Shown here piece by piece: positions 24,004-55,600 of a stretch of 64,000 bases of DNA. This DNA is from Parelaphostrongylus tenuis. Taxonomy: Eukaryota > Nematoda > Chromadorea > Rhabditida > Metastrongylidae. Where the stretch lies: contig JAHQIW010004459.1 of the NCBI GenBank assembly GCA_019055375.1, positions 109,901 through 173,900 of the forward strand, in the 5' to 3' direction. Under the pieces are notes generated by a model. The model searched no databases, was not told the origin of the DNA, and saw only the letters and a program-made list of their open reading frames with translations. Numbering within the stretch: position 1 is the first letter of the stretch; every line of letters starts with the position of its first letter. Made by a program: the position numbers and the translations under genes.

Positions 24004-24051
24004 GTGCTACTGATGAGTCCCAATAGGACGAAATAGGCGCCTATATAGCAC
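24004..24051 (+). ncRNA. Hammerhead ribozyme motif, copy A (type I)
   Basis: Stem I GTGCTA (24,004-24,009) pairs with TAGCAC (24,046-24,051). Core CTGATGA 24,010-24,016; stem II GTCC/GGAC (24,017-24,020, 24,026-24,029) with loop CAATA; GAAA 24,030-24,033; stem III palindrome TAGGCGCCTA 24,034-24,043; then TA with predicted cleavage after 24,045. Stem III is too short to close a good hairpin alone and, being self-complementary, could pair between two molecules, as in other minimal type I hammerheads. Confidence 0.88.
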
Positions 24052-24286
24052 TAGACCTATGGCTCAAAATATGTCACATCCTTATCAGATTAAATCATTT
24101 TGAGCGGGTCTGTAAAAAAAGCAGTCGATAGCAGAAGTATAGTTCATTTTAAAAGCCGTAAGCTCGACTGCCGGTCACCACAAAGTCAGGTAATAACATC
24201 ATCCTACTTTGGGTGCTTAATTTTACTCGGCGTCGGTTCCTTTGGAGGATTGTTTCACCTCAAGGGATCGACGGAACCGAGGGAGG

Positions 24287-24334
24287 GTGCTACTGATGAG
24301 TCTCAATAGGACGAAATAGGCGCCTATATAGCAC
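24287..24334 (+). ncRNA. Hammerhead ribozyme motif, copy B (type I)
   Basis: Same structure as copy A: stem I 24,287-24,292 with 24,329-24,334; CTGATGA 24,293-24,299; GAAA 24,313-24,316; predicted cleavage after 24,328. One C to T change in stem II (GTCT opposite GGAC) leaves a pairable T-G, so the fold is kept. It lies 283 nt from copy A in the same orientation. Confidence 0.88.
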
Positions 24335-24684
24335 TAGACCTATGGCTCAAAATATGTCACATCCTTAAAGATGTTTGAGTCATGCATGTGGCCTGTTATA
24401 GGACCTTATACAGGGAGAACATGTGTGTAGAAACTGAAAGGATTGGCTCAGACGATAGGCATTTGTGCAATTGACGAGGCTGGAAGACCGAAAAGCGTGT
24501 ATTGCACTGTATAAGTGCCCATAACATACCACATGCTCAGAAGTAATAACCAGACATATTAAAACTAGAGCGTGATTTCGAGAAAACACTCGAAAAGGAC
24601 GGCAGTTGTTGAGCAAATGATAAACAATACAATCGACAGTTCTTTAGTATAGCAGAAAAAGTGAATACTGCGGCAGGGCAAGGG

Positions 24685-24755
24685 CTTCGCTAGTACAATG
24701 GTTAGAGTGCCTCCGGTAAAGGTGAAAAGCAGGTTGAATTTTCGTCTGAGGTTTC
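24685..24755 (+). pseudogene. Degenerate tRNA-like sequence
   Basis: Box A-like CGCTAGTACAATGGTTAGAG and a ruined box B (CAGGTTGAATTTTCG). A weak relic of a tRNA-derived repeat. Confidence 0.35.
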
Positions 24756-24759
24756 AAGT

Positions 24760-25520
24760 TTTACATATCATTCAACATTCTTAAATATTCTGTTGCTTGG
24801 AATTTTATCATACGTTCAGAGGTATAGATTTTTCAGCCGTATAAAGAACTATAACTCACACATATCTACAAGTTATGAGCGCAGTGCTTTGACGTACACT
24901 GCATTACACATGTAATCGTTGGTTCGATCTCGGTTCCCAAGCTCACTAAGTCTTCCATCTCTCTGGCGTCGCAAAATTGGCACCAGAGTTGCATGGCAGA
25001 TAGAAAAACACTGATATAACATGTCGATGCTGTAAATCATTGTACAAATCATGGAGCCTGTTCAATAACCTTAATCAACTCATGAACGGAATTTTATTCA
25101 CGACGTAGTCTTAGGGGATTTTTTAACGAGCGCTTCATCCTCTTCAGTTTTCACCGAGTAATAAGTTAATTTGATTAATTTCAATCAAGTGCCTGAAGAA
25201 CGTCTACAATTCTGAAAAACATTCCCAAAAAATTGAAAGCGCGAATTTCAACAAATTTCCAGCATGATATTAACGAATGATTCCTCAAGTTGCTTCTTCT
25301 TATTGAATGCATTATCACTAGAATGTAGCCTCATGAATCAAATTCCAACATTTTGAAAATGCATTCATAACCTTTGAAAAGCTTCTAGAGAAGACATGAA
25401 CAAAGACGGAACCAACAAATCATTTTCAATTAACACGTCCTATGCATGATCAAACTTCAATGAATAAACAATTAAAGTACGGATAAATCATTCCACGAAA
25501 CGAGGGAAAAATAAGAATGA
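24760..25520. other. Stretch without recognised gene
   Basis: Only a ruined tRNA-like block (about 24,890-24,960, GGTTCGATCTCGG). Otherwise nothing seen. Confidence 0.4.
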
Positions 25521-25818
25521 AGAGGATAAAGCTCTCGGCACTGATCAATCCCTGAGGGATGCGCTATGCAGTCGACTTCAATTTTCAACTTCCTTTGAGG
25601 TGATTAAAGGCGCGTCTGGCCTTTACAATGACTCGCGGTACCGTCCCGCTAAACCGAGTCAGTGCTGCTTATCCTCCAAGACAAGTCTGATACCAGTCTA
25701 GTATGAATTTACCGACCCCGGAAGGACGGATGGCTTAGTGAGCTTTGAGCGCGAGATCGAAACATTGACCTCGTGTGCGACACAGTGCACCTCTACCCAC
25801 TGCGTCACATGCGCTCTT
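25521..25818 (-). mobile_element. SINE family S1 copy
   Basis: Full-length relative of the 51.4 kb copy in reverse orientation, with more substitutions in head and body. The tail AAGGATAAAGC-type end is at 25,521 and the tRNA-like head at about 25,750-25,818. Confidence 0.8.
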
Positions 25819-25903
25819 GAGTGAAAAATACTAGCTTGTGAATACTACTTCGCTTCACATTTGTAACAGAGAACTTTTACGGCAGAATAGCATTTTTCGT
25901 CAA

Positions 25904-26453
25904 AGTATTCTCTGTATGTTCCAGATGTTGATTACATTGTGAATCCTTTGTTTTCTAACTACGATATTTATCTCACTAGCACCTTTTCTTGTGTTGTGGT
26001 TGATTGTTTTTGCTGCGATTTATTGTTGTTGGTGTCTATTCATTTCTAAAAGATGAATAGTCGGAATTCCTTTGAAACGCAGAGATTTATAGAGTTCTAA
26101 TCAATCCTGACGACAACTGAGCTGTGCGCGACTCGTTTGTCACTTCCTCTAATCGCACGCACCTCTCTGTCAGCAATCTCTTTAGCTTGATAAATTGATT
26201 GAAAGCGTATTCTTCGAGAAGTCCCTCTCAAAGATATTTTTCTGTTCTTATAAAGTAAATATGAAACTCTATAAATCTCTGGTGTTGAAGGAAATTCAAC
26301 GACCCATCTTTCAGAAATGAATAGACATCAATAACAATAAACCGCATCAGAAATAATCACAACACAAGAAAAAGTACTGACGTAATAAATATCGTAGTTA
26401 GAAAACAAAGAGATTCACGTTGTAATCAACATCTGGAACGCACAGAAAATACT
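25904..26453. repeat. Large fold-back element with about 190-bp arms
   Basis: 25,904-26,096 and 26,265-26,453 are inverted copies with small indels (AGTATTCTCTG / CAGAAAATACT at the tips). The 170-bp centre is unrelated to the arms. No coding potential; a non-autonomous DNA element is likely. Confidence 0.8.
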
Positions 26454-26924
26454 AGAAACAGCAATGACATTAGTATACGTGAAAAGAGGAGCGAGTAATA
26501 AACTGAATCATATCAGTTAATAACATTGAGGATAGTACTACATGAACAAGTTCTGTCAACCAACTAAAGGCGAAACTTTCCAGTGAGCGAGTGAATCCGG
26601 AATTCATTGCAGAATACAAACCATTGAGAATGGGTGGTGTTAGGACTGCATAACACTCAACAGTATCGCATATGTATTTGTAACATGATACAAAGTGTTA
26701 AAAGTGATTAAAAATCTTGATTGGAGATTGACTGATTTGATACAGAAGACTGAATCAAAGCATCATGAATCATAGAATTAGTTGTACATGTGAATGGTAA
26801 GTGATGATTAAGTGCGTCATAGGAATATGTAGACTGATAAAAATAGAGCATAGAAACTAAAAGAAAATCATATACACCAGGAGTATTGAAAGACAAGCAG
26901 AACATTCAACATCAAGCGAAAGTT

Positions 26925-26995
26925 GAACCCGCGGCTCGCCCATACCAGGGGCTCCTACCACTATATCACCGACTCATCGTTCTGCTACCACTCTG
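26925..26995 (-). pseudogene. Degenerate tRNA-like sequence
   Basis: The minus strand reads GAGTCGGTGATATAGTGGTA ... GCGGGTTCAACT, the D-arm and T-arm blocks of a tRNA at about the right spacing; stems are not well paired. Confidence 0.4.
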
Positions 26996-27354
26996 TTCGA
27001 TATGTCCAATCGTAAGTGTCGGCAACCAACCTTCAACGGTTTGATCTGGTAAACAGATATCAGCATCAAACCATTGCACTGGAAGGTATTCAATGTTTTC
27101 TTTGCTTGCACTGCTTTTATCAGTGGTATGATGTTAAGAATATGTATCTAAAACTATGGAGTTATATGCAAAAACTACCCATCTCGTGAAACTTGGAGCA
27201 GCTTCAAAAAACATCAAACGACTCTTAAAAAGCAGCAAAAATAAAGAAATCACTTGTTAGGTTGGAAAGGAAGTTTTGAGGCAGTTCTAGAAAACTGAAA
27301 ATTCATGCATGATTACCAAAAAAGCATTAATAACTATTCCTTAGAATAAAGGCC

Positions 27355-27740
27355 TTCGTTTTCCACGACTTTCTACCATCGGTCCGCCAAGATCTGATCA
27401 AAGTGCCACTCTTTCGACGTTGAATTAAAGAACTCTTGACATACTTCAACTTGTTTGACGTCCTGAACGACGCTTGTCTTCGAGGTCAAGATGTCGGGCA
27501 TTGAAGAGTTGAAACAACCGCCCAGCAGATTTGCTTATTGTGCTTTCCACTTCAACGTCAATGATTTTATCGACTTCACCTCGCTGTGGAAGACCCTCTC
27601 TCCAGAAACGACGCAATATAACACAAACTTTGGCCGTATAGCAGAGGCTTGTGACAAAGTGAAAATAGAAACGGTCGATATAAGGCTTTCAGTAGGGAAA
27701 TCCCACATAAAAAACTATGATGTTCCCATGATATGCATGG
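27355..27740 (-). pseudogene. Highly decayed mariner-like transposase fragment
   Basis: Minus-strand frames contain FNARHLDLEDKRRSGRQ followed by further helix-turn-helix-like sequence, resembling the mariner FNAGDFDLEDKPRSGRP motif. Stops and shifts are frequent. A remnant only. Confidence 0.45.
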
Positions 27741-28052
27741 GTGTTATCTCATGCTAATTAAAGTGCCCAAGAACTTTCTTTCCAACCGTAACAGATTATA
27801 GATTTCGAACAGATGTCAGCATAAAGGGGTTTGATGCCGACATGTGCTTATTCGATCAAGCCCAACAAAAGCTGGTTGCTACCAGCTACGACAGGATAAT
27901 CAAAGAAAGAGCGGCACCAGAGCGCTGGCTGGTAGCGGTGTTGTAGCGGTAGTAAGCGCTCCGCTGTGGGTGAAGCAAGAATCTAAGATTCCGACTGATG
28001 TTGAATGTTTTTCATACCACTCGATACTTTTGGGTACATATTTGTACCATAG

Positions 28053-28345
28053 GAGCACATGTGGCGCACTGTTAGAGGTGCTCACGTCGCCCACGAGGTC
28101 AATGGTTAGATCTCGCGCTCATGGCACACGAAGCCATCCATCCCTCTGGGGTCGGTAATTTGGTACCAGACGGTCGCAAACTTGTCTGGGAGAATAAGCA
28201 GCAGTGACTCGGTACAGAGAGAGGCCACCGCGAGTCATTATAAAGGCCAGATATGCATTTAACCACCTCAAACGAAATCATAACTTGAAAACGATTTCAA
28301 GGCGCATTCCTCTGGGATAGATCAACGCCGAGAGCTTTATCCTAT
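28053..28345 (+). mobile_element. SINE family S1 copy
   Basis: Head GAGCACATGTGGCGCACTG, body GTACCAGACGG and CCGCGAGTCATTATAAAGGCC, tail GAGCTTTATCC. Box B is damaged (GGTTAGATCTC). Confidence 0.8.
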
Positions 28346-29084
28346 CTATTTATTTGCACCATCGAACCACTGTTAGAGTGTAATAAAAATAGATGGAACA
28401 TTTAATCATAATCACATTAATAACAACGGCGGGAATGAATCTCATGATATACGAGGGCGGTCTGACTAAGTCATTAAAGTTTAAGTTGTTTAAAGAGGCT
28501 CTTACAGTTGCTACTTTTTGTAGATTTCTGTGAAACATCTGGAAATACTTTTTTGCATTAACCCACCAAAAATCCTTCTCCTTTAAAACAGTGAAAAATT
28601 GTAACGAAGTGATAGTGGGACGGCATAGGACAGGAGACTGACAACTAAGCACTTTGAAACGATCATCCTGTGAGTAGGAACTATGGAACGAAGTTTTGTC
28701 TGAGTGGCAGTTTAAGATCGACACGTACCCTGGGGAGTGCATAGAGACACTCACAGCTGTCTTGCTCGAGTCGAGAACGCGCGCTACCCGAAACAAGGAT
28801 TGCGATTGCGATGGATATATTTCTCAATTTCAAGCCTTTCATGAAATTTGTTATGGCCCTTATATAGTGTAGTGTTTCTGTTCTTTGGTCTCATCACTAG
28901 CACGATGCCTTTCGGTTCACTCAGTCCCTTGCAAGGAGATATACTCCTTGTATATGCAGAGTGCGTAGAAAGCTCTGTCCATTTTTTCAGGCTTTTCAAC
29001 AGTTTTAAACAAATGATCATTCAGTTTGAGGACCAAATTCGTTTATCAAATAAACAATTACAACAATAAACGAAAGAGTTTATC

Positions 29085-30250
29085 ACAAATTTTCTACATT
29101 GCCTCCTTTGGCCTCGATACATCTAGAAAGTGGCTTGCAAAAACTTCCAACAATGCTCGCGTTTGATCTCACTATGATTATTTCCCAGCATTTATACTAG
29201 TGCAGTGAGTAGTCGAGATATTCTCCTCCAGTATAGACCACAGGAAGCAATCCACTGGGCTGAGATCCGCCGAGTTAGACGGCCAAACGTTCTTGCTCTA
29301 AAAGGCTGGAAACTGCTCTTGACGAATGGTAATCGTTGAACGGGCCGAATGCGCAAAACCCCATTTTTCCTAACGAGTAAGTCCGTCGGCACCAGAGGGT
29401 CAAGTACTCCAAGGCTCTAGTACTCCCCTTGAAATTTGTTGGTGGTAGTTGGCAGCGTTGAAATTGACATATCCGTTGATGAAGACAAACGAATTGTCTC
29501 CGGTGGCGCAAATGCCCCACCCAGGTTATCACAGAGGCCGAAAAATGATCGCGATCCATGGTTCTGGTACTGCAGTTTTCTGCTGACCCTTTTTGAGAAG
29601 TTCACGTTTATTCTGGCGATTGGGAGGTAGTCTGACTGCAAATTTCATCTTATCCGAGAAAAGCACCTTTGACGAACGAGCAACAGCGATTGACACAACT
29701 CATTCGGCGTGCCTTTTGAAAGCCGTTTTTTCTATATTTTTGTCCACAAAGAGCACACGAGCGATTTTGTGTCTACGTAGCATCATCTTATTCTTCATAA
29801 TGTTTCTCACGCTTCACTTCCTGATCCCGAGCTTTCGGAGCCATTTTGCGCATTGAACGCTTCGGATTCCGTTGAATTTAGGAACAGATCTTCTAAATGT
29901 TTTCCCCAATAGATTAGGCAGTTGGGAGACCTTTTCGAGGTCGGTACTCAACCCCTGCAACCTCTTTGAAATATTTCACTGTTTTGAAGACACTTACTGA
30001 TTTGAAATCAATCGATTCCAACAATGTCGGCCGTTTTCATCCCCGTCTTGTGCAACTGGGCTACTGCGATACGTTGATTTTTACGACCCATAACTTGACC
30101 ACAAGTGAAAATAGACAAGTAAATAAAACAGACTCTAGACCAAAATTGAACAAAGAGTTCAATAAAATCATCAGCATTGATAAGACATATCATATCAATG
30201 CCAAAATTAACAAAACACAAAATTATCAGAACTTTTTGCACACCCTGTAT
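29085..30250 (-). pseudogene. Tc1/mariner-superfamily transposon, decayed
   Basis: The N-terminus starts at ATG 30,091 (MGRKNQRIAVAQLHKTGMK), a helix-turn-helix start. The catalytic part is split over frames; a piece near 29,200-29,300 reads like ...SADLSPVDCFLWSILEE, the third catalytic region. The right end (30,233-30,248) reads CAGGGTGTGCAAAAAG on the minus strand, a plausible inverted-repeat tip; no matching left tip is visible, so the left end is probably lost. Multiple shifts rule out activity. Confidence 0.65.
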
Positions 30251-31017
30251 GTTGTCTAACAGTTGACACCTAAAAGTTATTTTCGCAGTTATTCTTCCGT
30301 ACCAACAAACTGACAGTCATATTTCAATAACCACTTCTCAAAAAATCTTGTCTCTAGTCAGTTTTTCATCTAATTATATCTTGTGACCGTTATTGTTGAT
30401 CACTGACCTCCCTTGCAGAAAAATCTCTAGCCAGTTACGAAGCAAAGTGATACATCTCCAGGTGGTTTATGAGGGACTGAACGCAGTCTGAAAGCAACGT
30501 TTGTGTTTCTCTGAGGCAGGTGAATTTAGCCCAGTTTCTACTGCGCCGATATTACCCATACCTTCTTTATATTCTATGAGTCAATAAACCAATGAAAGTG
30601 CTCAGGAGTCGTCTCCTGGATTAGACTTTCCTCGTCTGCTCCGAGAGAAATTGCAAGCTCTTATTAGTATATGTAGTCCTGACTTTCAGAGCTGAGCAAA
30701 CTGCCTAGCTATCAAATGCTAAACAATAAAATGAATGGATCTAATTCCAGTAGCGGCAACCTCAAACGAGCCCGACATCGTTAGATGGGACGAATACGCA
30801 GAGGCTGTTGAAAACCTCAGGAGCAATTGGTGGCGATCTGTGCATATACTGTACGCTCATTTGAATTGGAACCTTCTGTAGAAAACTCGATTGTAGACTA
30901 GTAGGCTAACGTACGACGTGACCGGCCTGACTTGAATGAGAAGTCACCACCGATTTCATAGTTCTTTTCACACATTATATATAGTATATATATATGACAA
31001 TCACAATATATATATAT

Positions 31018-31905
31018 ATATTGACGGTCGACAATTAAACCATCTTCGCTTTGCTGACGATATCGTTCTCATAACACCAAACATCAGCCAAGCGGAACGA
31101 ATGTTGACTGATTTCGACAACGCCTGTGGAAAGATCGGTCTTCAACTGAATCTAACGAAAACAATGTTCATGAGGAACGGATGGGTTTCTAATGCCCCAT
31201 TCACGCTCAACGGAACGACAATTTCCGAATGCTCCAGTTACATCTATCTAGGTCGTGAAATCAACATGATGAACGACCTAGCCCCAGAGTTGAGCAGGAG
31301 GAAACGAGCGGCTTGGGGAACGTTCAAGAGCATCGAAGATGTAGTGAAGAGGACAAAGAACATCCGACTCCGTGCCCACCTTTTCGACTCGACAATTATC
31401 CCTGCCCTAACGTATGCAGCAGAAACCTGGTCGCTACGTAAGCAGGATGAAAGATCACTTGCCGTTATCGAACGCGCAGTCGAAAGGTCGATGCTAGGAG
31501 TATCTCGTATTTCGCAAATGAGACAAAGGATCCGAACTTCCGACCTACGTCAACGATCGAAAATCAGAGACGCCGTTCTACACGCCAGGATATCGAAAAT
31601 AAGGTGGGCCGGACACGTGATGCGCTTCAACGACAACCGATGGACGAGAGCCGTTACCGACTGGATTCCTCGGGACGTCAAGCGCTCTAAAGGAAGACCA
31701 CTGACCCGTTGGTCCGATTTCTTCACGAAAGCGATGGAAGAAAGATATGATGCTCAGCGAATTCCTAAAGCAAGGAGGACCCACTGGGCTACTCTTGCAC
31801 GCGATAGGGAAAAATGGAAGAGTTGCTGGTACCCGCTCGAGTCACTCGACGATCAACGGGACGACAGGTGATACAGGTGATATATATATATATACATAAT
31901 TTTTG
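31018..31905 (+). mobile_element. RTE 3'-terminal copy 2, longest, with FADD motif
   Basis: The open frame ending at 31,871 includes the reverse transcriptase active-site box LRFADDIVLITP (about 31,040-31,075), then the same C-terminal domain as copy 1, ending [11 protein letters not shown] and stop. The apparent frame start at 30,936 lies in flanking DNA; the element begins right after an AT microsatellite at about 31,017. The 3' end GATACAGGTGATA runs into a TA tract. 5'-truncated, so not autonomous. Confidence 0.9.
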
Positions 31906-32167
31906 AAAAGATTCTTAGGTGATTTGATTACCGAAATATTACTGGCAGTTATCAGAAGTCACTATCCATTTCTTAAAGAGCTCAAGTGTTCGGCCTCCTG
32001 GTGTTTAATACAATATTGGCATGTTTGTTTTCTACTTACAGTTAGTTTCAAGCATCTGTAACCCATAACATATTATGACTTGCTGGATTGAATTTCTTAA
32101 ATTTTGTGATTAATGTGAGTTGATAGTATTTTCAATGCATTTCGTACTGTTATGATGTTTCCAATAT

Positions 32168-32247
32168 TCCTAAGAGAATTGAGTGGTGAGCAAAAACACC
32201 AGAGGTCCTGAGGTCGTATTTTTGCTCACCACTCAATTCTCTTAGGA
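32168..32247. repeat. Fold-back element with perfect 29-bp arms
   Basis: Left arm 32,168-32,196 (starts TCCTAAGAGAATTGAGTGGT) is the exact reverse complement of 32,219-32,247, with a 22-bp spacer. Arms without mismatches suggest a recent origin. The arm is shared with the tRNA-like element at 12.1 kb. Confidence 0.85.
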
Positions 32248-32249
32248 TT

Positions 32250-34250
32250 AATGTGAGTTTTCAAACATTTTCATTGTCAACTCAACGTCAACTGATGGAT
32301 TGGGTTGTCTCATAATTTCCTTTGCACTATTGTGAATCGATTTTTTTCCCTTTTTCCAAACGATTCAAAGGAATTGCAAGTGCATATCTTATTTCAAATT
32401 CCAGTTTTACATACTGTCTGTAGCGAAGGTTTGTAGCCGATGCACTGAATTATATGTAGAGATTCAGTGGATTCGTACAGTATTGTGAAGGTTCAGTGAT
32501 TTATATTGATTATACCAAACAGTAAGATGGAACCAAACAATGGCGCGGGACCAAACAATGTGGTAGAACCAAACAACCTATAATATACATACATTACTAT
32601 AATAATATAATAATAATAATATATACATGATAGCGACATATCGTTATGTGAACATATGCCTATGTCAATGTGAGTGACCGACTGATGAGAAGTATCGTCA
32701 TCTGACGATACTATGAATGTTATTATGACTGACGGTGTTATTGTAACTGAAGATATTACGTAACTGACGGTGTTATTGTAATTGACGGAGCATGACTAGG
32801 CGGCAGAGCTCGTTTGGGTTGTTATGCTTGCCCCGGAATAACAAGCCAAAGGTAGGATCCCAGTGGGTGAATATATAGTGTGATAACAGTGGGGTCACTA
32901 CTGATTATATATGGGCAGGATCCCTTAACCGCGTGCGGGCCGAGCATAGCCTAGGTGAGTTCGCTCCGCCACGGTAGCGCTATGTTCCGCTCACGATTCT
33001 CTTGAGTTCATTTAACAGTTATATGAACACAACCTTATGACAGCAATTAGATACACGACAACGAGACTGTGTGAAGAGAGCATTAATGGATCGATTACGA
33101 TTTGAGCTGAGGTGGTCCGGATGAAGTTACACGACCGTTCGAATGATGCGCGGCGATCAAACTGACTGGCAGCTGGGTGCCGCCCTCGTCACTTGGACCA
33201 TTTTCTGTTCTAAGGTCTTCGAACCTCTGCGATACCACTTGCTGTCTGAGGTCATGGACCATCTGCGTTGCCTAAATTATCACGTAATTCCGGAAAAGAT
33301 AGCAAGCTCTGTTGGGAGGTTTGCTACGCTGCGGCCTCGCTAAATATTCATCTCCTATGCTCAATAAATCAGTGAGTCTACGAGCCTGAACATCATGCCG
33401 TTTTGGATGTTTGTAGACGAGATGACTGAAGGAGACGAAGAAAGTTTTCCTATAAAAGGTTAAAGACCAGGAACTGACATTTGGGTGAAGCGTGTAACTA
33501 ACGATCAAAAGGGAATTGTGAGAAAAGATGGGAAAAAAAGGATTATAAAGATTTTGCTCTTGATGACGGGTATCCAGTTGGAGATAGCCCCATGCTGAGG
33601 TTGTTCATTATGTTTGGTTTAACTAAGAAAATTGAGACAGTCTCTGTAGTTCATTCGTCTTCTCGGACGGTAGTTGTAGTTTATTCGTGTTTTCGGACGA
33701 ACGTTATAGTTTATTCGTCTTCTCGGACGGTCCCCACTTAGAGCTAGTCCTATAGATGCCATGACTGGTCCAGGGGCGTAGTATGAAGTCCCAAGCTGAG
33801 GTTGTTTGCCAGGTCTTGGGGTGGTAATTGGCTTTAAGAATACCTTTGATTGAGCAAAATTACGATTATGTAGACCACAACGCAAGATCGTGCGTTGTAA
33901 GTCTATTTTTAGGGGTAGCTGAACTTTTCCACTACTTCGGCTGCCACTACAATGCACTGGTCCGTCATGATGTTGACGTTTTATATTTCCTGCTTTATTT
34001 TTGCTTCAGCTCTTTCCATACAGAGATATGGAAAGTGATTCTGATCTAATGGCGGAATTCATATGTACGGGACGGTTTTCCAAGTTTGAGGTTGCTTGGT
34101 TATGACTTGATGAAGTTGTCTTGTTCAGCTACTCATAGAGTTGGTTGTAATATGTTGTTTAAGGTTATAGTAAGTTGGGTAGACACTTGTATAGGCCCGT
34201 TGCACCATCGCTCGGTGTTTTAATGAAACGATCTACCGCAAAGTGGTCTT
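32250..34250. other. Unclassified, partly less AT-rich stretch
   Basis: Holds an ATA-rich run (32,575-32,640), a TGACGGTGTTATTGTAA block repeated near 32,730 and 32,765, a less AT-rich part at 32.8-33.35 kb with broken protein-like frames, and the 30-bp tandem at 33.65 kb. It may be an old mobile element; no family assigned. Confidence 0.3.
33647..33730. repeat. Three 30-bp tandem repeats
   Basis: TAGTTCATTCGTCTTCTCGG at 33,647 recurs with few changes at 33,677 and 33,707, spacing exactly 30. Confidence 0.8.
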
Positions 34251-34254
34251 TATG

Positions 34255-34350
34255 AACAGTTCATTCAGTGACCGCACAGCTCATGTTGCAATGTCGACTC
34301 GCCACATTTTGGACAAACTGGGCTGAACTTTCAAGTTCGACGCAATCATA
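34255..34350 (+). pseudogene. Short mariner transposase fragment
   Basis: The plus strand reads SDRTAHVAMSTRHILDKLG, close to the region after the second catalytic Asp in mariner and to the copy at 1.9 kb. Both sides are unrelated; only about 90 bp is recognisable. Confidence 0.5.
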
Positions 34351-34750: not shown

Positions 34751-34751
34751 A

Positions 34752-36112: not shown

Positions 36113-36425
36113 GATTAAGACACAACATAGTGTGGAACACGAGCATGATGAGTTCATGACTTTGGATTTCATCCAGCAGAATGGTCCTCAATACCTTTCA
36201 ATCGACTATTATGAGACCTACTTAGAAATGTAATATAGCCTGATAGAATGTTCTGAGCCTTTCATGAGATTTGATTTGACAATTCTAAGGCTAGACGTAC
36301 GTTCCCGCTTTCTTTCGTGCCTCATCGGTAGCGCATGCCATTGGGATGTTGGCCGCTATGCCTCCGTTACAGTCGCACGCCATGCAGTCGACAATCAATT
36401 ACTAGAGCAACTTCATATCAAGTGA
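36113..36425 (+). CDS. Candidate last two exons of an unrecognised gene
   Basis: Exon A 36,113-36,229 follows a pyrimidine-rich TTTTTCCTTAG acceptor and reads VEHEHDEFMTLDFIQQNG, YLSIDYYETYLE. A GT donor after GAAAT and an acceptor TTCTAAG at 36,289 remove a 60-bp intron and keep phase into exon B (36,290-36,425): LDVRSRFLSCLIGSACHWDV, HAVDNQLLEQLHIK, TGA. Intron size and phase are nematode-like. I recognise no family and found no upstream exons; the open stretches are short enough to arise by chance. Confidence 0.3.
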
Positions 36426-37034
36426 GCTTTTCATTTGATGTGCAGTGATTCATTTTCGACCAGGATTCCTAGTAATAGTAGGACTGCAAGAAAGCCGAAA
36501 AGAAAGAAAGACGCACGGTCTGGCAGTAGAGGTGCCATCTGAGATTTCATGAAAGTCCTACATTCTGTCAGGACCAACATTTCGTATGATTTGTTGTTCC
36601 TCTTGTACAATCTTCACGAGCGTCTCTTCTCAATCTCCTAGTTATACATAATGACGAAGGAAAGATGGAATGAGCAGACAACATCGGAGATCAGATTAAG
36701 TCGGAGTTTGTCGGCAAATTCGCTTCAAAATTGGTCACCATATTTCTCAGTCTTTATTGTTTCTCTGATGAGCATAGACGAGGTTGTTTTTGAGTTAACA
36801 ATCTCGGGTGTGCTCATCATTAGAAACGATATTGATTCATTTAATTATTGCTGACATCGATCGCTAGTCAGCTGGTTTTGAGTATCGCTTTGTGAAGTAC
36901 TAGCAACATATTACCGACTTGTCAAGGAAGTGTTCTTTCACTACATCAAAAGATTGTCTTAGCTTGACAAACGATCTCTCTTTTCTCTTCATTCGATCGC
37001 TTTTTTATAGACCTTGCCTAAACAAAAATAATCT

Positions 37035-37115
37035 GACAACAGTATAACATGTTTTGAGCCATTAGGTCTAAGTGCTATACAAGCGCTTGTATTCGTCCTA
37101 CCGCACTGTACTGGT
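37035..37115 (-). mobile_element. Fossil of the hammerhead element
   Basis: On the minus strand a TAGGACGAA segment, a stem-III-like palindrome (ACAAGCGCTTGT), TAGCAC, and then a stretch close to the element's GACCTATGGCTCAAAA 3' region appear in the correct order. The CTGATGA core is lost, so it cannot be catalytic. Read as an old diverged copy. Confidence 0.6.
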
Positions 37116-42680: not shown

Positions 42681-42689
42681 AACCTTCAA

Positions 42690-45590: not shown

Positions 45591-45599
45591 ACTAATATA

Positions 45600-46590
45600 T
45601 TACAACGCCGTAGTATGAGAAGAATTACTAACTGCATCGGTCAGTTGTAACTCTTCCGCAGCATGTCGTTCTGCGATAAGACGGCTATGCGATTCCCGTT
45701 GCTTCTGCATATCCTCGCGCTCTTCTTTGAATCGCTGCTCAAGCATTGCACGTCTCAAAGCGATTCTTTCATCTAACGCAGTGAGCTCCTTAAAAAAAAC
45801 ATAAGATCAACAAAATTTAGGTGATGTGAAAAAACTGTCGTTTCGAATGCCCCATTCACGCTCAACGGAATGACAATTTCCGAATGCTCCAGTTACGTCT
45901 ATATAGGTCGGGAAATCAACATGATGAACGGCCTAGCTCCAAAGTTGAGCAGGATGAAACGAGCGGCTTAGGGAACGTTCAAGAGCATCGAAGATTTAGT
46001 GAAGAGGACAAAGAACATCCGACTCCGGTGCCCACCTTTTCAACTCGACAATTATCCCTGCCCTAACGTATGCAGCAGAAACCTGGTCGCTACGTAAGCA
46101 AGATGAAAGATCACTTGGAGTTATTGAACGCGCAGTCGAAAGGTCGATGCTAGGAGTATCCCGTATCTCGCAAATGAGAAAAAGGATCCGAAGTTCTGAC
46201 CTACGTCAACGATCGAAAATCAGAGACGCCGTTCTACAAGCCAGGATATCGAAAATAAGGTGGGCCGGACACGTGATGCGCTTCAACGACAAGCGATGGA
46301 CGAGAGCCGTTACCGACTGGATTCCTCGGGACGTCAAGCGCTCTAAAGGAAGGCCACTGACCCGTTGGTCCGATTTCTTCACGAAAGCGATGGAAGAAAG
46401 ATATGATGCTCAGCGAATTCCTAGAGCGAGGATGACGCTCTGGGCTACTCTTGCACGCGATAGGGAAAAATGGAAGAGTTGCTGGTATCCGCTCGAGTCA
46501 CTCGACGATCAACGGGACGACAGGTGATACAGGTGATATATATGTATATGTATATATATATACAACAAAAAATTTCTATATATATGTATA

Positions 46591-46623
<33 letters not shown>

Positions 46624-49600
46624 GACATCTTTTCTCAAATAAAAACAAAAATCGAACGCCATAAGAACCTAATACCATGCCTGCACAAAACTAAAGTGTT
46701 AATAAAAACAAAGCCACCGACAGCTTGAGCAGAAGCCAAATAAAAGTAATTTGAACAAAGTGAGATTAAACTGCGACACCCATAGGAAATTCTTTACAGC
46801 TGTTATTTCCTCCATTGAAAACATTTCTTCCGCAATGTGACAGATCTACTTTGGACGTTCAACAAACAATTTTTAAACTAAACTACCTTATCAATTGTAT
46901 TCTCCAATTGTGCTCGTTGTTTAGCCTGATACTCCTTCAATTCGTCCAACTCCTTAGCAAGTCGCTCATGTAATGATCGAGCCTCTTCTTCCTGCCATGA
47001 TTCCAGTTTTCCCTAAGAAGATTGAAGTAAACTCGAGGGTTTAGATGAAAAAATAATCTCATCAACGTAACGATCAAAATTTATCAATATGAACGTAATG
47101 GAATTTCAAACTAACAGTCTTTTCCTGGACCATGCTTTCAATCTGATATTCGTACTGAGATGTAAGTAGAGCAATTCGACGTTTTTGCTTCTGAAACTAG
47201 GAGAACAAAAATACAACGAAGTTGATGCAGTCCCAAAACTGAAAACGTGGTAAAAAGCAAGAATAAATAAACTTAAAAAATAATCAAAAATGTACTCACC
47301 TCCTTCAGTTGGATAGAGATCTCCTTATGTTCTTCTTTCGGAGTAGCCTGCATTAACTGCGTCTGGTAGAGCTTGAATTGTCTCGCTTGAGTTTTGACGG
47401 CTTGTCGAAACTGTTTGCGAATTTGCGCCTCTTTCAACTAAGAACATCATTATATGCAAGAAATAAGGACTGGCTGTCTTCTTTCTGAACTCAATCTCCT
47501 AGTGTTGATCCATTGTAGCCGATAAGAAGATGTCAAATAAAAAATCTATACACAAGACGCAGCGAGTACCTTGAGCTCCCTGGGCTGTTGTCTACTTTGT
47601 ATAGCGTGCCGCTTTCTCAAATCATCGCTTTTCCTCTTTGTGTATTCAGTCTGATTAGTCGACTCCGCATCATGCTGTATGATCTGGAATATTAAAAGCT
47701 ATAGATATCTGAAGATAGATTAAAACCAACTCTACTAAGCTCGCATGGGACACACAGGAATAACGGGAAGTACTTTGAAGTAGAAGCCATCATCAATGAA
47801 GACGTGAACCGCAGGGAGCAATGCCTCGGAATCATATGTGATACGGGCAGTATAAAAGACCATTGTTTCTGATGCAGACGGTGCATTCGCAAACCACGTG
47901 ATCTCTACTAAGCTGGTCTCCACGAGGACAAAATTGAAGACTCATAAAAAGCGGTGAGTATGTTGAGTTCTTTGTCCTGGATGTGACTGAAATCAAGGTT
48001 TACAATTTTTGTAACGAGTCAATTACGGGGTTCGCTGACTGGGTTGTGGAGAATCTCGGCCATCCAGGCTCTAGAGAAGGTGAGATCGTCGAAACGTCAG
48101 CTGTTTATAATGAAGTTGTATTACAAAAACTTCTCGGCTGATTCAGAAAGAATATTTTGTGATTTATTGAAGAATGCAGATTTAAAGAGAGTCGGTTTTG
48201 GAGATAAAAAGCTACAGAATTCAGCTCTCATTCTAAGAAATTAATGTGACACTCAAGTGCAACAATTGGTATGATTGACCAAAAAAATGTTCGAAATGCA
48301 AGCATTGAACATCCACGAGCCTGATGTCGCTTCTTCATTGTCTGAATCTCCTTCAGCTGAGCTACTTCAATATCTCTAGTAGCTTCATGATGACGAAGTA
48401 GCATTGCCTGGCGATTGTCCATTTGACGTTCCAGCACATTAAGATCCTGGAAACAAAATGATCCTTGGATTTATATAGAAATTTTCACACTCAGTGCAGT
48501 TATGAAGCCCGTTCTGCGTACAAGTAATTAGAAAGGAATAAAAGTTGAATAAGCGTAAATTGAGATGATGTCAAGTTCAAAAAATGTGTAGGTTCACTCT
48601 TAACAAGATTCCGTATAAAAATACACGAGTAGTTTCCAGTTTGAGTGACCATATATCAAGGTGAGTTGGTGGGAGTAGCATAATAACACCAAAATATGTA
48701 AAACTAGCCGCAAACAAGAAAATTGATGGATACTAACTGAAAGAAAAATTATAAGCAGCTCGAAGAAAAAAATTAATAGTTGCTTATTGTGCCAGTAATA
48801 AGGTTATATCACATCAATTATAGAAATGACGCTAAATTCTTGGGACGTTACTTTCAAGGAAATACCAATGAGCTGTCCTCGCAAGAGTGTACTTTTATGC
48901 TAATTTGTTCGGAGCATGGAGATCTCACCTCTTCATCCAAACGTTTTTCGGTGCTGTGAAGCATGAGCAATTGGGAACGTCGGTACTTCATAACCTCCGA
49001 CTCAAGTTCGGCTCGAAGTTTTGCCTCAAACGCAGCTTCGGCGTTCGTTCTCTGTTTTGTCAATTGTGCTTTTATATCCTTCAAAGCCACTTCATAAGCA
49101 GATCGCGTTAATCCACGTTCTTTCAGACTCTAGAAGTATGATTAAATTCAGAAAACACTGACGAAAATCCAAAATTATATAAGTTATATGAGAGATATTC
49201 TATTGATTATTTTCCCAACGCTTGACAAAGAAATCAATGTTGAAGCTAATAATGAAACTATTTAGATTTGATAAATTAAACTTCCGCTACAACTAAGGAT
49301 TAGATCAAATATGGCTGCAAAACAGAACGATACAATCCAAAAATCGATTTCTTGTTATTTTACATGCTATATATGATCCTACGTATGCACAACTATATAT
49401 ACAGATACGTACGTACATATACAGATGTATGCATATAAACATGTACGTGTACATGCATGTGTACGTGTAGAATACATATATAATTGTGTATAAATGTACA
49501 TATAGACGTACAATCATGTATGTACATATATATATATATATATATACATGTATATATATGTTGTCGCTTTTAGCGTTTTTGAAATTCACGCTTCAACAAA

Positions 49601-52600
49601 AAGATCACCTCCAAATGCTTCACGTTACGTCTTATCTAGGTCCTTGAAATCAACATGATTATCCATTCAGCTCCATAGCTGAGCAGGAGGAAACGAGCGG
49701 CTTGGAGATTGTCCAAGCAGCATCGAGGATCTAGTGAAGAGAACATGAAACATCCGACTCCAAGCCCACCTTTTCGACTCGACGATTATTCCTGCCCTAA
49801 CGTATGCAGCAGAAACCTGGTCGCTACGTAAGCAGGATGAAGATGAATTGGCGTTCAATGAAGGCGTAGTGAAAGGACAATGCGAGGAGTATACCATATC
49901 TCCCAAATGAGAGATAGGATCACAAGTTCTGACTTAGGTCATCGATCGAAGGTCAAATATTCCGTTCTGCACACTAAGCTATCGCAGATAAGCACGCGAT
50001 AGGGTAAAACTGGAAGTTTTGCTGATGCCCGCTCGAGTCACTACTCTACGATCAACGGGACGACATGTGATACAGGTGATATATACATGCATACGTATAT
50101 ATATACTTATATACTTTAGCAGTTTATTTGATCCGTCCATCATAGTGTTTTCTTTTCATTGTGTGTATCCCACTAGTTCTAGCATTCAACTCGTTCTTCG
50201 TCTTCTTAGAACGGCGTAAAATACTAGTCGAGCGAGTTCCTTGCAATCTGGAGGAAAGCCTTGCTGCTGGTGTGCTGTGCTGTTGACTTTCGGAGAGGAA
50301 GCGGGGTGTGGAGCTTGGCTCCACGCGCGTCGTGACCAACATCACAACCACTCGGCCACAGCGCCCCTACATATATCATTGTATTATATACATGCACATG
50401 CATGTATGCATATGTATACATGTACACACATACATATATGCATGTATATACATATGCAGACATGTATATATGTGCGCATATAAGTGGTACTCTTCTGTTA
50501 ATGAACAATTCCACTGGACTTTTAGTAATCATTTGAAAGCTTGAATCTTCAACAATTCAGATTTATATGCTATTTTTTGAGAAGACCTTCTTACAGAGTT
50601 GTAACACTACTTTGTTCCACACAGTTGCGCATTATCGCGGTTAATTTTCGCAAGAAAGAGCTCTTTCCGCAAAGTAATAATGAATATTCGGCAGCGTAGA
50701 TCTCGAAAATTCCAAGAATGTAGTTGATCACTGAGAAGGCTTTCTTGCGTTTCTGTGGCAGGATCGACTGACGGCACAGGCGTAACTTACATGTGAAGTG
50801 CAATTTCTCTCATTAAATCCTGAAATTTTTCGCGCATCGAAAAAAAACTGCAAATAAAACATGACCCTCTTACTGCGAGATTTCATCTACACGTCCATAT
50901 GCCCTTCATAGGCCTAGGCTGCATGAGCTTGGGCTTATTGGCAAGTTTTATCTGTCAAAATAGGATGAAGATGGAGCCTAAGCCCACAAAGCGAACGGAA
51001 AAAATCCTCACTTGAATGACGAAAATGCGCGCGATAGCGCGCGCGACAATTGTGGAACACAATCTTATTTTCCCTGCTACAACGTTGTGAAAGGCCTTTC
51101 TGAAAGCAAGTACGTTTTTGACTTTCCGAGATTTACGCTATCGAACGATTATGAACACTCAAGAGGAAGTGCTCTGTGCCCAACGAATGTGAAACACAAT
51201 GTTATTCTCACTACAACAGCGCTGAAAAAGGACTTTTGAAAACAAGTACATTTTCGACCGTCCCAGATACAGGCCTTTGTGTGATTATTGATACTCTAAT
51301 GAAAAGTCTTCGTTAAGCAAAAAAGGTTGCTTTAAAAACCCCTCTCCAATTACAGAAAAGTACCATATGCACATCTACACATTGAGAAGCATATATATAT
51401 ATAGAGCGCATGTGGCGCAGTGGTTAGAGGTGCCCTGCGTCGCACACGAGGTCAATGGTTCGATCTCGCGCTCATGGCTCACCAAGCCATCCATCCCTAC
51501 GGGGTCGGTAAATTGGTACCAGACAGGTCTCAGACTTGTCTGGGAGGATAAGCAGCACTGACTCGGTTCAGCGGGAGGCCTCCGCGAGTCATTGTAAAGG
51601 CCAGATATGCATTCAATCGCCTCAAACAAAGTTAAAAATTGAAGTCGGATGCATGGCGCATCCCTCAGGGATTGATCAACGCCGAAAGCTTTATCCTTTT
51701 TTTATACGCATGCAAATGCATACATATGTACACACATACGCAAGTACATATATGTGAAGGAGTAAGAGTACGACTATAAGAATCTCAAAATTCAGTACAG
51801 GAAAAACAGAAAAAATACTTCTTGAAAATTCTCATGGACAGGGCATGAGAACGCAGATTTCACGCAATTTCACGCGTGCGATATACAAAAATGTTATGCA
51901 ATATAATTCCAAAAAAAATGATCTAAGCTTAAACGGGGTTAATACGCCAGGGTCATACACCGGTGTTTCGGAGGCTTGACCCGGTCATACACCGGTGTTT
52001 CGGAGGCTCGACTGAGAGGTGGTGATGGACCAGTGTCATAGTACACTGTGCCATCACCACATACGCCTCCCTCCTTGCTTCATTGCAGGGCTGAATGTGG
52101 GGCGAGGGTCACTGACGAAGAGGACGAGCCTCCGAAACACCGGTGTATAACCCTGGCGTATCAACCCCGTTTAAGCTTAAATCATTGTTTTTTTTTTTGG
52201 AATTATACTGAAGGTTTTTTTTCGGGGTTTCAAAAACAGTCGATCTTTTGGAAAAATGACATGATTTGGAAAGCTGTTATATAATGGTAAAAATAGATGA
52301 GTGCTCTTTTTCATACAAACATACGTTCTTCGCCATTTCTTTACTGTGACGATAATCTTTCAGCTGAGCGTTGGAGAAACACCGCATTTCATGAGCTTGA
52401 CGAGACTAGAATTACGTTCATTTGAATGAAAATTAAGGCATACATTAAGAATTCCAATGATGACAAAAAGAAAAATGTACAATATATACAAATCACTTAC
52501 TAAAACCTGTTTCCGCAACTTTTTTTTCGCCTTCATCAATCTCCTTCTTCTTTTTTTCTAATTCATTTTGATGCGCTGTTTTGAATCGGAGTCGTTCCTG

Positions 52601-55600
52601 AAATCATCCAAAATCAAACCAAAGAAGAGCGAGAAAAAAAATCTTACGCGATAAAGATTAACAATTGAATACAATCTCTAAATAGCCAAATTGCATTTTT
52701 AGACCATACCTTAGCGTATCCGGAAACAAGCTGATCGAGCTCCTTATCAAGTCGCAAACGAAGAAGTTCGATATCTGATGCACAACGTTCCTCTAACTAT
52801 AAAAACTTTCTCTGTAAAAAAAAGCGGTCGATAGCAGAGGTATGGTTTATTTTAAAAGCCGCAAGCTCAACTGCCGTTCACCACAAAGTCAGGTAATACC
52901 ATCATCCTACTTTGGGTGTTTTATTTTTACTCGGCGCCGGTTCCTTTAGAGGATTATTTCACCGCAAGGGATCGACGGAACCGAGGGAGGGTGCTACTGA
53001 TGAGTCCCAATAGGACGAAATAGGCGCCTATATAGCACTAGACCTATCGGCTCAAAACAAGTAATATCCTTATCAGATTATAAAAACTTTCCTAAGACTT
53101 TTCAAAACAACTCCCATCCTCTCATTAGCAAATTAAAGTATTGTTAATGTGAAGAAAAATTAGCGGAGGATCACAGTCTCAAGCATTCAGGAACATGCTT
53201 TGAAGGAAAAAGAAATTTCTGGGAAAAAAGTGAAGTCTCCGCGCTGTAACTGAGCAGCTAATTCAGCACAAACCTGTTGTATCTCTTTATGGTGCATTTG
53301 TCGAAGACGCTTATATCCATTCATCTGCTCATACATGTTATTTTCTTTGTTGTATTCTTCTTGTTCACGAGAGATCAACTTCGCCGAACGCAACGTGGAA
53401 AACTTCGACTTCTTCAGCGTCGCCATGTCATCCTATTATGTGAGTTTGAAAAGGTAGAACAACAAACACCGATCTGGTTGATATGAAACATTACTCTTTT
53501 TTAATACGTAAAAAGTTCAGAATTCAAAAAGTGAAGATCAAGATGACAGCAAATAAAACTTTAGAAAAGAATTCAAACATGTTAAAGCAGATAGGAGGGA
53601 AGCACATTTTACAATTGCAGATTCACTCATTGACAGACCACTGACATGCGTGGCTCAAATAATGATTATCAGGCATATTAATATTTGAGCTGTGGTCTTA
53701 AGAAAACACTCGAAATGAACGATATGTTATATTAAATATACTAGCCACGAGCATTCGAGTGTACAACACTCTGTGTTTGGTGAGTTCTTCACTGACACAG
53801 AGTGTAAAACGTACGTCGTCGCTAACTTTTATTGTGGGCACTGGAGCACCCACAGAGATTAGCAAAAGACGAGAAAGGGCAACTGCCCGACTGATGAGAT
53901 CGCAAGATCGAAACACGTGTCATCGGGCTCTATAAGTCAGCCCTCATTGACAGACCACTGACATGCGTGGCTCAAATAATGATTATCAGGCATATTGAAA
54001 TTTGAGCTGTGGTCTTAAGAAAACAATCGAAATGAAAGATATGCAGGATCCACTATAAACCTCTTCAAGACTGAACAAAAAAAAACAACACACCTTGATA
54101 TTCCTATCAATCCTAATAGAAGGTATAGGACTTCGAGGTCGAATATTGTTCACCTCGGGATTTTCAAGCGACACATTTCCAACCGGTATGCAAGTGCGAT
54201 TCTAAAAGCACACATAACCCTCAAAACATCTTCCGGGAATTACATCACAGCGTCTAGTTGTCGGTTGACAGACAAATAGCGGAAAAGGCCAAAACTAACC
54301 TCTCCCTCCGTACTGTCTGATCGGAAGTTGTTTGGAATCGGTGGTCGACTGCTATTACTATTACCACCACTGGTTGCTTTGCATAGAACGGAAACGAAGT
54401 GAGACTTCTCAAAGAACCACTCTTTGAACTTGTGGAGCCCCCTAAACTATTAGGTCTCATACTGCCTAAGAATGTGAAATCAGAGATAAAAATACCAATA
54501 CAAACATCAACTTGTTGTGAATTTCGCCAATTTTAACAGTGAAGCACTCATTGATCAGATAACAAACTACGTTAACCATCCAAGAAGCATATGGTACATT
54601 CCGCACCACGCCGCGTGACGTCAAATCCTACTGAGCTACTGTAATGGTCGCCGGTCTTTTGAGAAGGCAGGCATACAGCCAGAAATGCATGAACAGACAT
54701 GCAGATGCCGTTTGACTGCAACTATCGCCCAAACGACGGCGCGACGCCGCATGCCTTATCAACGGTAATCCTCAAAGGGTTAATCAACACATTTGTGATA
54801 CAGTTTGTTTTAACGCCCTTAAAACACTATTTGTATATTTGTGTAGCGTGAAATATCTCTCATTGAAACCTAATTATTTACCGATTGATATAGAGTTACA
54901 TGCTCATACAGCGTAGTAGAGTTAGAAGATCGAAAAACATCTGAGCTATTATTTCATGAAAATTATATCTGAGCTAACCTTTCTCGACAGATGATATTCC
55001 ACAATCGGTCACAAGGTCATCAACCTCTTCACATACTTCACCTTAATCAAAATGTCGAACAAATGGCAAATGGAGATATATACATATATATATATATGTA
55101 TATACATATCATATATGTATATATATATATATATATATGAGGCGCTTAGGTGAGAGTGAAAAAACGATAGTGCTGTAGAAATCAGGTGTAAAGAAGCCAA
55201 GAAGACACAAATTAAGCAATTCTGAATCATAAGTTTGTATCCAGAAATAGTATGCAAGTCAGAAGAGGTACCTTGAAGATTTTCTCCCTCTTTATTGTCC
55301 ACTTCATCGAGATACATCAGCTTTCGCATTTTTTTGTATTGGAAGTTGTCCAATTCCAAAACCTACAAAATCACAAACCAACAATCCTCAAGAATTCTTA
55401 TTGAATAGATAATACGGTGACGAAACCCACGATGGCTTTCGTCCTCGTTATCAACTCTTGAATCACTCCATTATGATTCGACCGAGTGATAAATGCATGC
55501 TAGAAGAAACGCAGAGTCAATGAACTCCATATAACATCCCTGTGCTTCAAATACGTCAAAAAAACATAGCAATGGATCTAAACAAAATACGTTTAGTAGG

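What the first reader, a model, noticed from the sequence alone, without database searches (positions are those of the whole stretch)
24004..53038. Three complete hammerhead ribozyme motifs in a short nematode repeat
At 24,004-24,051, 24,287-24,334 and 52,991-53,038 the invariant CTGATGA and GAAA blocks occur in order with stems I, II and III able to pair. The only stem difference (C to T in stem II of copy B) keeps pairing through G-T, which is what selection on structure would allow. Hammerheads of this minimal type I form are known in Penelope-like terminal repeats, retrozymes and schistosome SINE-like repeats. A small element of this kind in a hookworm-like nematode would be notable.
Basis: partly seen in the sequence, partly recalled or inferred. 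Interest (0 to 1): 0.9.

Follow-up and report, generated by a model that had tools for sequence, protein, structure and literature searches.

The report
Ribozyme repeats copied by Penelope elements
A 283-base repeat with a self-cutting RNA motif has spread to many places in a parasitic roundworm's genome, and the scars it leaves look like those of Penelope retrotransposons, which points to the machinery that most likely copies it.

Summary
All three hammerheads are present and Rfam finds a fourth (56,242-56,284 minus). Rfam scores are 25-31 bits, below the cut-off of 34. The genome is probably Parelaphostrongylus tenuis, a strongylid, not a hookworm.

The repeat is a 283-nt retrozyme with 2,388 near-exact ribozyme cores genome-wide (reversed control 0). 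The ribozyme varies about ten times less than the unit's average.

New here is the anatomy of its insertions. Of 58 distinct copies read, 45 are two-armed, head-to-head inversions. Duplications of 10-16 bp (mode 12) flank 46 of 58 (mismatched flanks: 12 of 3,306). cDNA starts lie in two zones about 50 nt apart, in predicted loops (100 of 103 ends), usually one zone per strand (38 of 45; shuffled mean 21). 101 of 104 arms run through the ribozyme cut site and 60 exceed one unit, so the template was circular or uncut multimeric RNA.

Two adjacent start sites are the "tail" signature reported as unique to Penelope-like elements (PMC11167929). Penelope-like elements of this genome show the same head-to-head form; the best-read one has a 12-bp duplication, start sites 43 nt apart and a hammerhead at similar spacing. 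Penelope mobilisation of animal retrozymes had been proposed. No cleavage or RNA circle was tested.

The parts
23946..24365 (.). Element E1, family 1: short minus arm joined head-to-head to a plus arm that holds two hammerheads 283 nt apart
   Evidence: BLAST arms 23941-23980 (-, outer end u33; u29 by exact match) and 23997-24367 (+, outer end u247); the arms overlap the duplication by 5 and 2 nt
23933..23945 (.). Target-site duplication of E1, left copy (TAAAGATGTTTGA)
   Evidence: sequence
24366..24378 (.). Target-site duplication of E1, right copy (overlaps the plus arm by 2 nt)
   Evidence: sequence
24004..24051 (+). Hammerhead ribozyme, copy A (type I topology, predicted cut ...CCTATA|TAGCAC)
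   Evidence: RF00163 29.5 bits
24287..24334 (+). Hammerhead ribozyme, copy B (one C-to-T change in stem II, G-T pair kept)
   Evidence: RF00163 25.4 bits
52811..53080 (+). Element E2, family 1, single-armed, 270 nt, 92.6% identical to the unit
   Evidence: duplication TATAAAAACTTTC
52798..52810 (.). Target-site duplication of E2, left copy
   Evidence: sequence
53079..53091 (.). Target-site duplication of E2, right copy
   Evidence: sequence
52991..53038 (+). Hammerhead ribozyme, copy C
   Evidence: RF00163 29.5 bits
53626..54043 (+). Element E3, a second retrozyme-like family (repeat spacing 317 nt); hammerhead core at 53891-53913, probably damaged (no Rfam hit, stem I needs a bulge)
   Evidence: (101-nt direct repeat, 96%, spacing 317); no clean duplication
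56185..56495 (-). Element E4, related third family, two-armed, with the best-scoring hammerhead of the window (56242-56284)
   Evidence: duplication ACTTCAATTTT at 56174-56184 and 56496-56506; minus arm recognised by reading it against the L043 and L054 copies

Best explanation
The repeat is a metazoan-type retrozyme: a small non-coding retroelement whose tandem transcripts are expected to be cut by a (probably dimeric) hammerhead, and it is most likely copied into the genome by the machinery of a Penelope-like element (PLE). Steps, with status. (1) Read-through transcription of tandem units, hammerhead cutting, then circularisation: inferred (ribozyme conserved; no RNA data). (2) The PLE protein cuts both strands of a target about 10-12 bp apart: the stagger is shown by the duplications, the enzyme is inferred. 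(3) The two target ends pair with the RNA and start reverse transcription in two hairpin loops, about 44 nt (A) and 94 nt (B) downstream of the ribozyme cut site, normally one strand in each loop: start positions shown by the insertion ends, loops predicted. (4) Both cDNAs run along the same RNA, often more than once round, and meet head-to-head at unrelated points: shown as products; a circular template is the simplest reading, an uncut multimer is not excluded.
For: 2,388 genomic cores, reversed control 0. Duplications of at least 10 bp in 46 of 58 copies against 12 of 3,306 mismatched flank pairs; 41 of the 46 are 11-14 bp. 45 of 58 distinct copies two-armed, always minus-then-plus, none plus-then-minus. 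100 of 103 outer ends in zones A (u236-272) or B (u10-40), which lie on the loops of two hairpins predicted from the single unit sequence; 38 of 45 two-armed copies have one end in each zone, permutation mean 21.1, 0 of 20,000 reach 38. Target sequence matches the RNA in register at both ends, falling from 0.84-0.85 at the first duplicated base to background, and above shuffles only at offset 0. 101 of 104 arms pass the cleavage site, 60 of 104 exceed one unit. The two arms of one element share variants: 67 of 1,092 site comparisons differ (6.1%) against 21.7% for arms of different elements. Ribozyme constrained about tenfold. PLE in the same genome: GIY-YIG hits within 6 kb of each other are '-+' in 20 of 22 neighbour pairs and never '+-' (a largely overlapping list 22 of 24). 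L088 has two arms 99.8% identical over 895 nt, a 12-bp duplication and one arm 43 nt longer; those 43 nt are PLE sequence, since a query that ends with them matches 36 of 40 scored copies to its last base and the other 4 to within 2 bases. L088 carries a minimal hammerhead core 61 nt before its shorter end. [quoted passage not shown] PMC7229834 (discussion read): PLEs are named as strong candidates to mobilise animal retrozymes.
Against: No Rfam hit in the window reaches the gathering score. No transcript, cleavage or circle data. The PLE sequence basis is thin: one complete two-armed insertion (L088), one single-armed copy (L051) flanked by a 13-bp direct repeat that I read as its duplication although about 12 nt between them are unassigned, relics such as L058 and L059, and coordinates of others; the PLE tandem junction could not be read. 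No sequence shared by retrozyme and PLE priming regions was shown: a candidate 11-nt match lay in the L051 direct repeat and is absent from the main PLE family. PMC11167929 reports start sites not homologous to the cut DNA, whereas here target and RNA match at the ends; it saw no difference in start site between strands, whereas here the two strands use different zones; and there the hammerhead was not needed for insertion in vitro. 12 of 58 copies lack a duplication of 10 bp or more; 7 of 45 two-armed copies are not A/B (4 A/A, 3 other). 38 of the 58 distinct copies come from top-scoring hits and the window; the other 20 are the first in a list of exact core matches, and of these 15 are two-armed and 13 have a duplication of at least 10 bp.
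Confidence: 0.85

Rival explanations
1. A LINE of the RTE or similar class with an AP-type endonuclease copies the retrozyme, and the inversions are ordinary L1-style twin priming.
For: Non-LTR reverse transcriptase remains seem to be in the window (motif FADD, recalled as typical, in the frame at 30936-31871); target-primed start with microhomology is common to LINEs (recalled).
Against: Both cDNA starts are internal and restricted to two fixed zones 50 nt apart; inversion is the rule (45 of 58), not the exception. [quoted passage not shown] I did not map RTE insertions in this genome.
Confidence: 0.07
2. The RNA is mobilised by a PLE, but the template is an uncut linear multimer and the hammerhead plays no part in insertion.
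For: In vitro the lizard PLE hammerhead is dispensable and unprocessed RNA is the main substrate (PMC11167929). Arms cross the cleavage site, which an uncut multimer also explains.
Against: The hammerhead is among the most constrained parts of the unit and both arms mostly carry the same variants, as one circle would give; identical neighbouring units in an array would weaken this point.
Confidence: 0.25
3. Head-to-head structure comes from self-priming of the cDNA on an antisense template, as proposed for rotifer PLEs (PMC3846280).
For: Same head-to-head orientation; that paper reports palindromes at the inverted junction.
Against: Self-priming predicts that both arms end at the same unit position; inner ends agree within 5 nt in 2 of 45 elements, 1.75 expected by chance. 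Target-RNA matching is seen at both outer ends.
Confidence: 0.04
4. Ordinary satellite DNA or a palindromic DNA transposon (MITE) that happens to contain hammerhead-like sequence.
For: Tandem runs of up to about 14 units in one arm occur (L031).
Against: Copies are dispersed, most with their own duplication (46 of 58); outer ends vary within two zones, so there are no fixed terminal inverted repeats.
Confidence: 0.02

Closest known systems
Metazoan non-LTR retrozymes with type I hammerheads (PMC7229834: abstract, discussion, one passage; PMC7761336: passages and one section)
   Same: Small tandem non-coding units with a type I hammerhead, weak helix III that often needs a dimer, dozens to thousands of copies, G+C under 50% (44% here), duplications longer than the 4 bp of plant retrozymes
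   Different: Found here in a nematode (the word 'nematode' occurs in neither main text); insertion anatomy resolved: two start zones, usually one per strand, head-to-head arms, about 12-bp duplications. [quoted passage not shown]
Penelope-like elements, Penelope/Poseidon clade (PMC3846280: passages; PMC11167929: abstract, main text, start of methods)
   Same: Head-to-head arms, a tail of about 30-43 nt on one of the two ends, duplications of 8-10 bp in print and 12 bp in L088, hammerhead upstream of two adjacent start sites, AT-rich targets
   Different: The retrozyme has no protein; two different starts are used in the same insertion in 38 of 45 two-armed copies; target and RNA match at the starts
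Schistosome W-elements with hammerheads (PMC8490949, passages only)
   Same: Worm satellite-like repeats with hammerheads; possible target duplications reported
   Different: No two-site, head-to-head insertion pattern in the passages seen
Plant LTR retrozymes (PMC4918200, search listing and abstract start only)
   Same: Hammerhead-bearing non-autonomous elements that propagate through circular RNA
   Different: Type III hammerheads in LTRs, 4-bp duplications, Gypsy machinery thought likely (as given in PMC7229834)

Membership tests
Hammerhead ribozyme, type I | Invariant core CUGANGA and GAAA in order, with stems I, II and III able to pair | tested here: met
   hand-built structure of copy A scores -11.1 kcal/mol
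Hammerhead ribozyme, type I | Covariance-model score above the curators' cut-off (34 bits) | tested here: not met
   29.5, 25.4, 29.5, and 31.1 for the one at 56242. Other loci of this genome reach 45.8
Hammerhead ribozyme, type I | Conservation of the core above the rest of the element | tested here: met
   0.0021 against 0.0195-0.035 in five other segments; 0.0029 in the adjacent 18 nt
Hammerhead ribozyme, type I | Self-cleavage in magnesium, lost in a core mutant | not testable with these tools
   needs the bench
Metazoan non-LTR retrozyme | Tandem units of about 150-450 bp that carry a type I hammerhead, low G+C | tested here: met
   282-283 nt spacing; G+C 44%
Metazoan non-LTR retrozyme | No protein-coding capacity | tested here: met
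   no stop-to-stop frame of 110 aa or more overlaps E1 or E2
Metazoan non-LTR retrozyme | Target-site duplication longer than 4 bp | tested here: met
   46 of 58
Metazoan non-LTR retrozyme | No LTR, primer-binding site or polypurine tract | not tested
   no call looked for them
Metazoan non-LTR retrozyme | Expression as small circular RNA | not testable with these tools
   no RNA data available
Penelope-like element (as partner, in this genome) | Reverse transcriptase and GIY-YIG endonuclease in one element | tested here: inconclusive
   GIY-YIG 34.4 bits in L088; relic L059 has RVT_1 at E 0.0015, 18.7 bits, under its cut-off of 29.6, upstream of a GIY-YIG-like frame found by tblastn that Pfam did not call; a related protein P0029 has both domains precomputed
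Penelope-like element (as partner, in this genome) | Tandem and head-to-head copies with a tail on one end | tested here: met
   head-to-head; tandem; tail: read in one insertion only, L088
Penelope-like element | Encodes its own reverse transcriptase (is the 283-nt repeat itself a PLE?) | tested here: not met
   the repeat is filed as a retrozyme, not a PLE

The most novel reading that the evidence does not exclude
Animal retrozymes are parasites of Penelope-like elements: a ribozyme-made RNA circle carries two priming loops that imitate the PLE start region, and both cut ends of the target DNA are engaged at the same time, one in each loop, so that rolling reverse transcription from both sides makes the head-to-head multimers. 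This would also explain the puzzling head-to-head form and one-sided tail of Penelope elements themselves as two-ended priming on one RNA, not self-priming.
Probability: 0.6. Interest if true: 0.85.

Novelty: new variant of a known kind. Interest (0 to 1): 0.76.

Why it matters
[quoted passage not shown] Many young copies here record where each cDNA began, and they carry the two-site signature reported as unique to Penelope elements. That turns the question into a direct test with a purified PLE protein and a 283-nt RNA, and it offers a mechanism (both target ends primed on one RNA) for the odd structure of Penelope insertions. It also adds a strongylid nematode with several hammerhead families, of interest for genome annotation and for ribozyme-made circular RNA.

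Tried and rejected
A shared sequence between PLE and retrozyme priming regions: the PLE 3' end in L051 seemed to continue into CAGTCGATAGC, identical to retrozyme u2-12. A genome-wide pattern test found the junction only there, and the stretch recurs as a 13-bp direct repeat on the other side of that PLE (L051 1048 and 1337). Withdrawn. A general module (GGCTCAAA hairpin, GGTCT, A-rich stretch, CA[GC]TCGA) recurs in several retrozyme families (read by eye) but was not shown in the PLE.

Run-off at the ribozyme cut as the cause of the inner ends: no pile-up at u209 is apparent (inner ends spread). Self-priming: not supported. Rfam miRNA hits at about 17.7, 46.5, 49.4, 50.4, 55.1 and 61.6 kb look like low-complexity artefacts and are below their cut-offs. 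A first flank-RNA comparison was replaced by one on duplication-verified bases, because some ends were mutations inside the element. Even so, finding duplications by longest common string adds some chance matches at the first base or two; positions 5-12 alone give only p = 0.04 and 0.07.

Rows dropped: L039 (same element as L038, on the inverted half of one contig) from the counts, 13 of 58 copies (no duplication of 10-16 bp found, or L058, whose duplication was an artefact; a 10-bp one exists). In one search, 3 of 85 ends were dropped.
Full report
WHAT IS THERE. Searches confirm the three hammerheads. A fourth, at 56,242-56,284 minus, is the best RF00163 hit of the window at 31.1 bits. A further core at 53,891-53,913 has no Rfam hit at E up to 5, and its stem I needs a bulged base. 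None reaches Rfam's gathering score of 34, and the bare core pattern is not beyond chance (25 of 100 shuffles). The case rests on the genome.

GENOME-WIDE. The window lies in contig C2924 of a 481.5-Mb assembly. A 32-nt core pattern has 2,388 matches with up to two mismatches, control 0. The unit is 282-283 nt, repeated head-to-tail with near identity. This is an inference from one contig length and two protein pieces at 98% and 90%.

INSERTION ANATOMY. I read 59 copies: 37 loci around the best-scoring hits, 20 that are the first in the list of exact core matches, and two in the window; 58 are distinct. Of 59, 45 are '-+', one is '--+', 13 have one orientation, none is '+-'. Duplications of at least 10 bp flank 46 of 58 (21 are 12 bp, 41 are 11-14 bp); mismatched left and right flanks give 12 of 3,306. 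In the 20 list-order loci, 15 are two-armed and 13 have such a duplication.

TWO START ZONES. In unit coordinates (1 = GCAGTCGATAGCAG...), the outer ends, which are the cDNA starts, fall at u236-272 (58) or u10-40 (42), 100 of 103 in all. Folded alone, the unit RNA puts both zones in hairpin loops: stem 224-232/260-268 and stem 1-8/44-51 (a single-sequence prediction). Measured from the predicted ribozyme cut at 208|209, the medians are 43.5 and 94 nt. In 38 of 45 two-armed copies one end is in each zone; shuffling ends gives a mean of 21.1 and never 38 in 20,000. So the two strands do not choose independently.

PRIMING. The duplicated target bases match the RNA in register at both ends: 0.84, 0.70, 0.64, 0.50, 0.50, 0.52 at zone A and 0.85, 0.67, 0.62, 0.46, 0.46, 0.26 at zone B, from the element outward; the match is above shuffles only at offset 0. 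The first base or two are inflated by how duplications were found; positions 5-12 alone are marginal (p 0.04 and 0.07).

TEMPLATE. 101 of 104 arms run through the ribozyme cut site and 60 exceed one unit, up to 3.9 kb. A cut linear monomer cannot have been the template of those. Arms of the same element differ at 67 of 1,092 polymorphic-site comparisons (45 elements), arms of different elements at 21.7%. Inner ends of the two arms are unrelated: 2 of 45 within 5 nt, 1.75 expected.

CONSTRAINT. The hammerhead segment has a variant fraction of 0.0021; hairpin B 0.0195, u52-104 0.0241, hairpin C 0.0295, loop A 0.0348, u260-283 0.0350, and the adjacent u215-232 0.0029. Stem III is a palindrome, and a pair of ribozymes is predicted far more stable (-43.3) than two single ones (-13.4 each). 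PMC7761336 (passages and one section) describes dimeric action for hammerheads with weak helix III.

OTHER FAMILIES. E4 (56,185-56,495 minus) is a related family with two arms and an 11-bp duplication ACTTCAATTTT (arm assignment by eye), so the pattern does not seem limited to one family. E3 (53,626-54,043) is another, single-armed, with no clean duplication. Similar modules occur in L035, L037, L043, L054, L067, L083 and L088.

THE PARTNER. A GIY-YIG search gives 150 scored hits of 1,723 candidates. Neighbours within 6 kb are '-+' in 20 of 22 pairs, never '+-'; a second list that overlaps it gives 22 of 24. L088 holds one such insertion: arms of 895 nt at 99.8%, a 12-bp duplication TGTATCCATATT, and one arm 43 nt longer, i.e. 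two start sites one tail apart. Those 43 nt belong to the PLE: a query ending in them matches 36 of 40 scored copies to its last base and the other four to within two bases. Its hammerhead core CTGAAGA...GAAACGTC ends 61 nt before the shorter end (no Rfam hit). A single-armed copy in L051 is flanked by a 13-bp direct repeat, read as its duplication, with about 12 nt unassigned. PLE units repeat about every 2,985 nt (2,984-2,991; C1932, C411, C2880).

COMPARISON WITH PRINT. PMC11167929 (abstract, main text, start of methods read) shows for a lizard PLE that both strands are cut and extended, that targets are AT-rich and that reverse transcription starts at two adjacent internal sites, which explains the PLE tail; its ribozyme cut lies 26 nt and the commonest start 111-118 nt into the frame, 85-92 nt apart, close to the 94 nt here. 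It differs in reporting no homology at the start, no difference between strands and no need for the ribozyme in vitro. PMC3846280 (passages) describes inverted pLTRs, 8-10 bp duplications (none in some copies) and a 31-bp tail on one of the inverted pLTRs, and proposes self-priming while leaving it open. PMC7229834 (abstract, discussion, one passage) proposes PLEs as mobilisers of animal retrozymes. PMC3088659 (passages) has no occurrence of 'nematode'. In the listings of searches (30 of 34 shown), 67, 68, 70, 71, 75, 81 and 82 of an open-licence library I saw no paper on two-site insertions of retrozymes or on retrozymes in nematodes; two papers on PLE hammerheads are not held, so this is weak evidence of absence.

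VERDICT. A real, recently active, very abundant retrozyme family in a strongylid nematode. The kind is known; the insertion anatomy, and the link to Penelope elements that it supplies, appear new and are directly testable.

The core at 53,891 was downgraded to a probably damaged one, the L051 duplication was stated with its 12 unassigned bases, PLE unit spacing was widened to 2,984-2,991, and the strand difference from PMC11167929 was added. None of these moved the odds.

Noticed in passing
23651-23717 and 24469-24535: Inverted 67-nt arms (87%) on either side of E1: probably an older retrozyme-like insertion, with a decayed hammerhead-like stretch near 24465-24515 (by eye), into which E1 jumped.
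   Followed up: partly
37001-37100 (-) and near 36218 (-): Relics: a 77%-identical family-1 fragment, and a decayed priming-module sequence of another family.
   Followed up: no
15691-17314 (-), 22834-23133, 47807-48102: Decayed Penelope-like fragments; similar relics turn up in many of the fetched loci, so PLEs seem very common in this genome.
   Followed up: partly
8988-9059 (-), 60146-60213 (-), 9314-9385 (+): tRNA-like sequences (55.4, 40.8 and 27.8 bits, the last below its cut-off); the first two share most of their sequence and one lacks part of the anticodon arm: perhaps a tRNA-derived repeat.
   Followed up: no
9635-10336, 30936-31871, 46003-46527 (+): Three copies of one coding fragment resembling a non-LTR (RTE-like, recalled) reverse transcriptase C-terminus; Pfam gives no significant family for the first.
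   Followed up: no
L088:2480-2751: Another retrozyme-like element beside the Penelope insertion; it shares a 17-nt exact stretch with u107-123 of the 283-nt unit.
   Followed up: no
G000:C2799:362696-362744 and C2944:151014-151265: Other hammerheads above the Rfam cut-off (45.8 bits; a '-|+' pair of 35.8 and 37.0 bits), perhaps further families.
   Followed up: no
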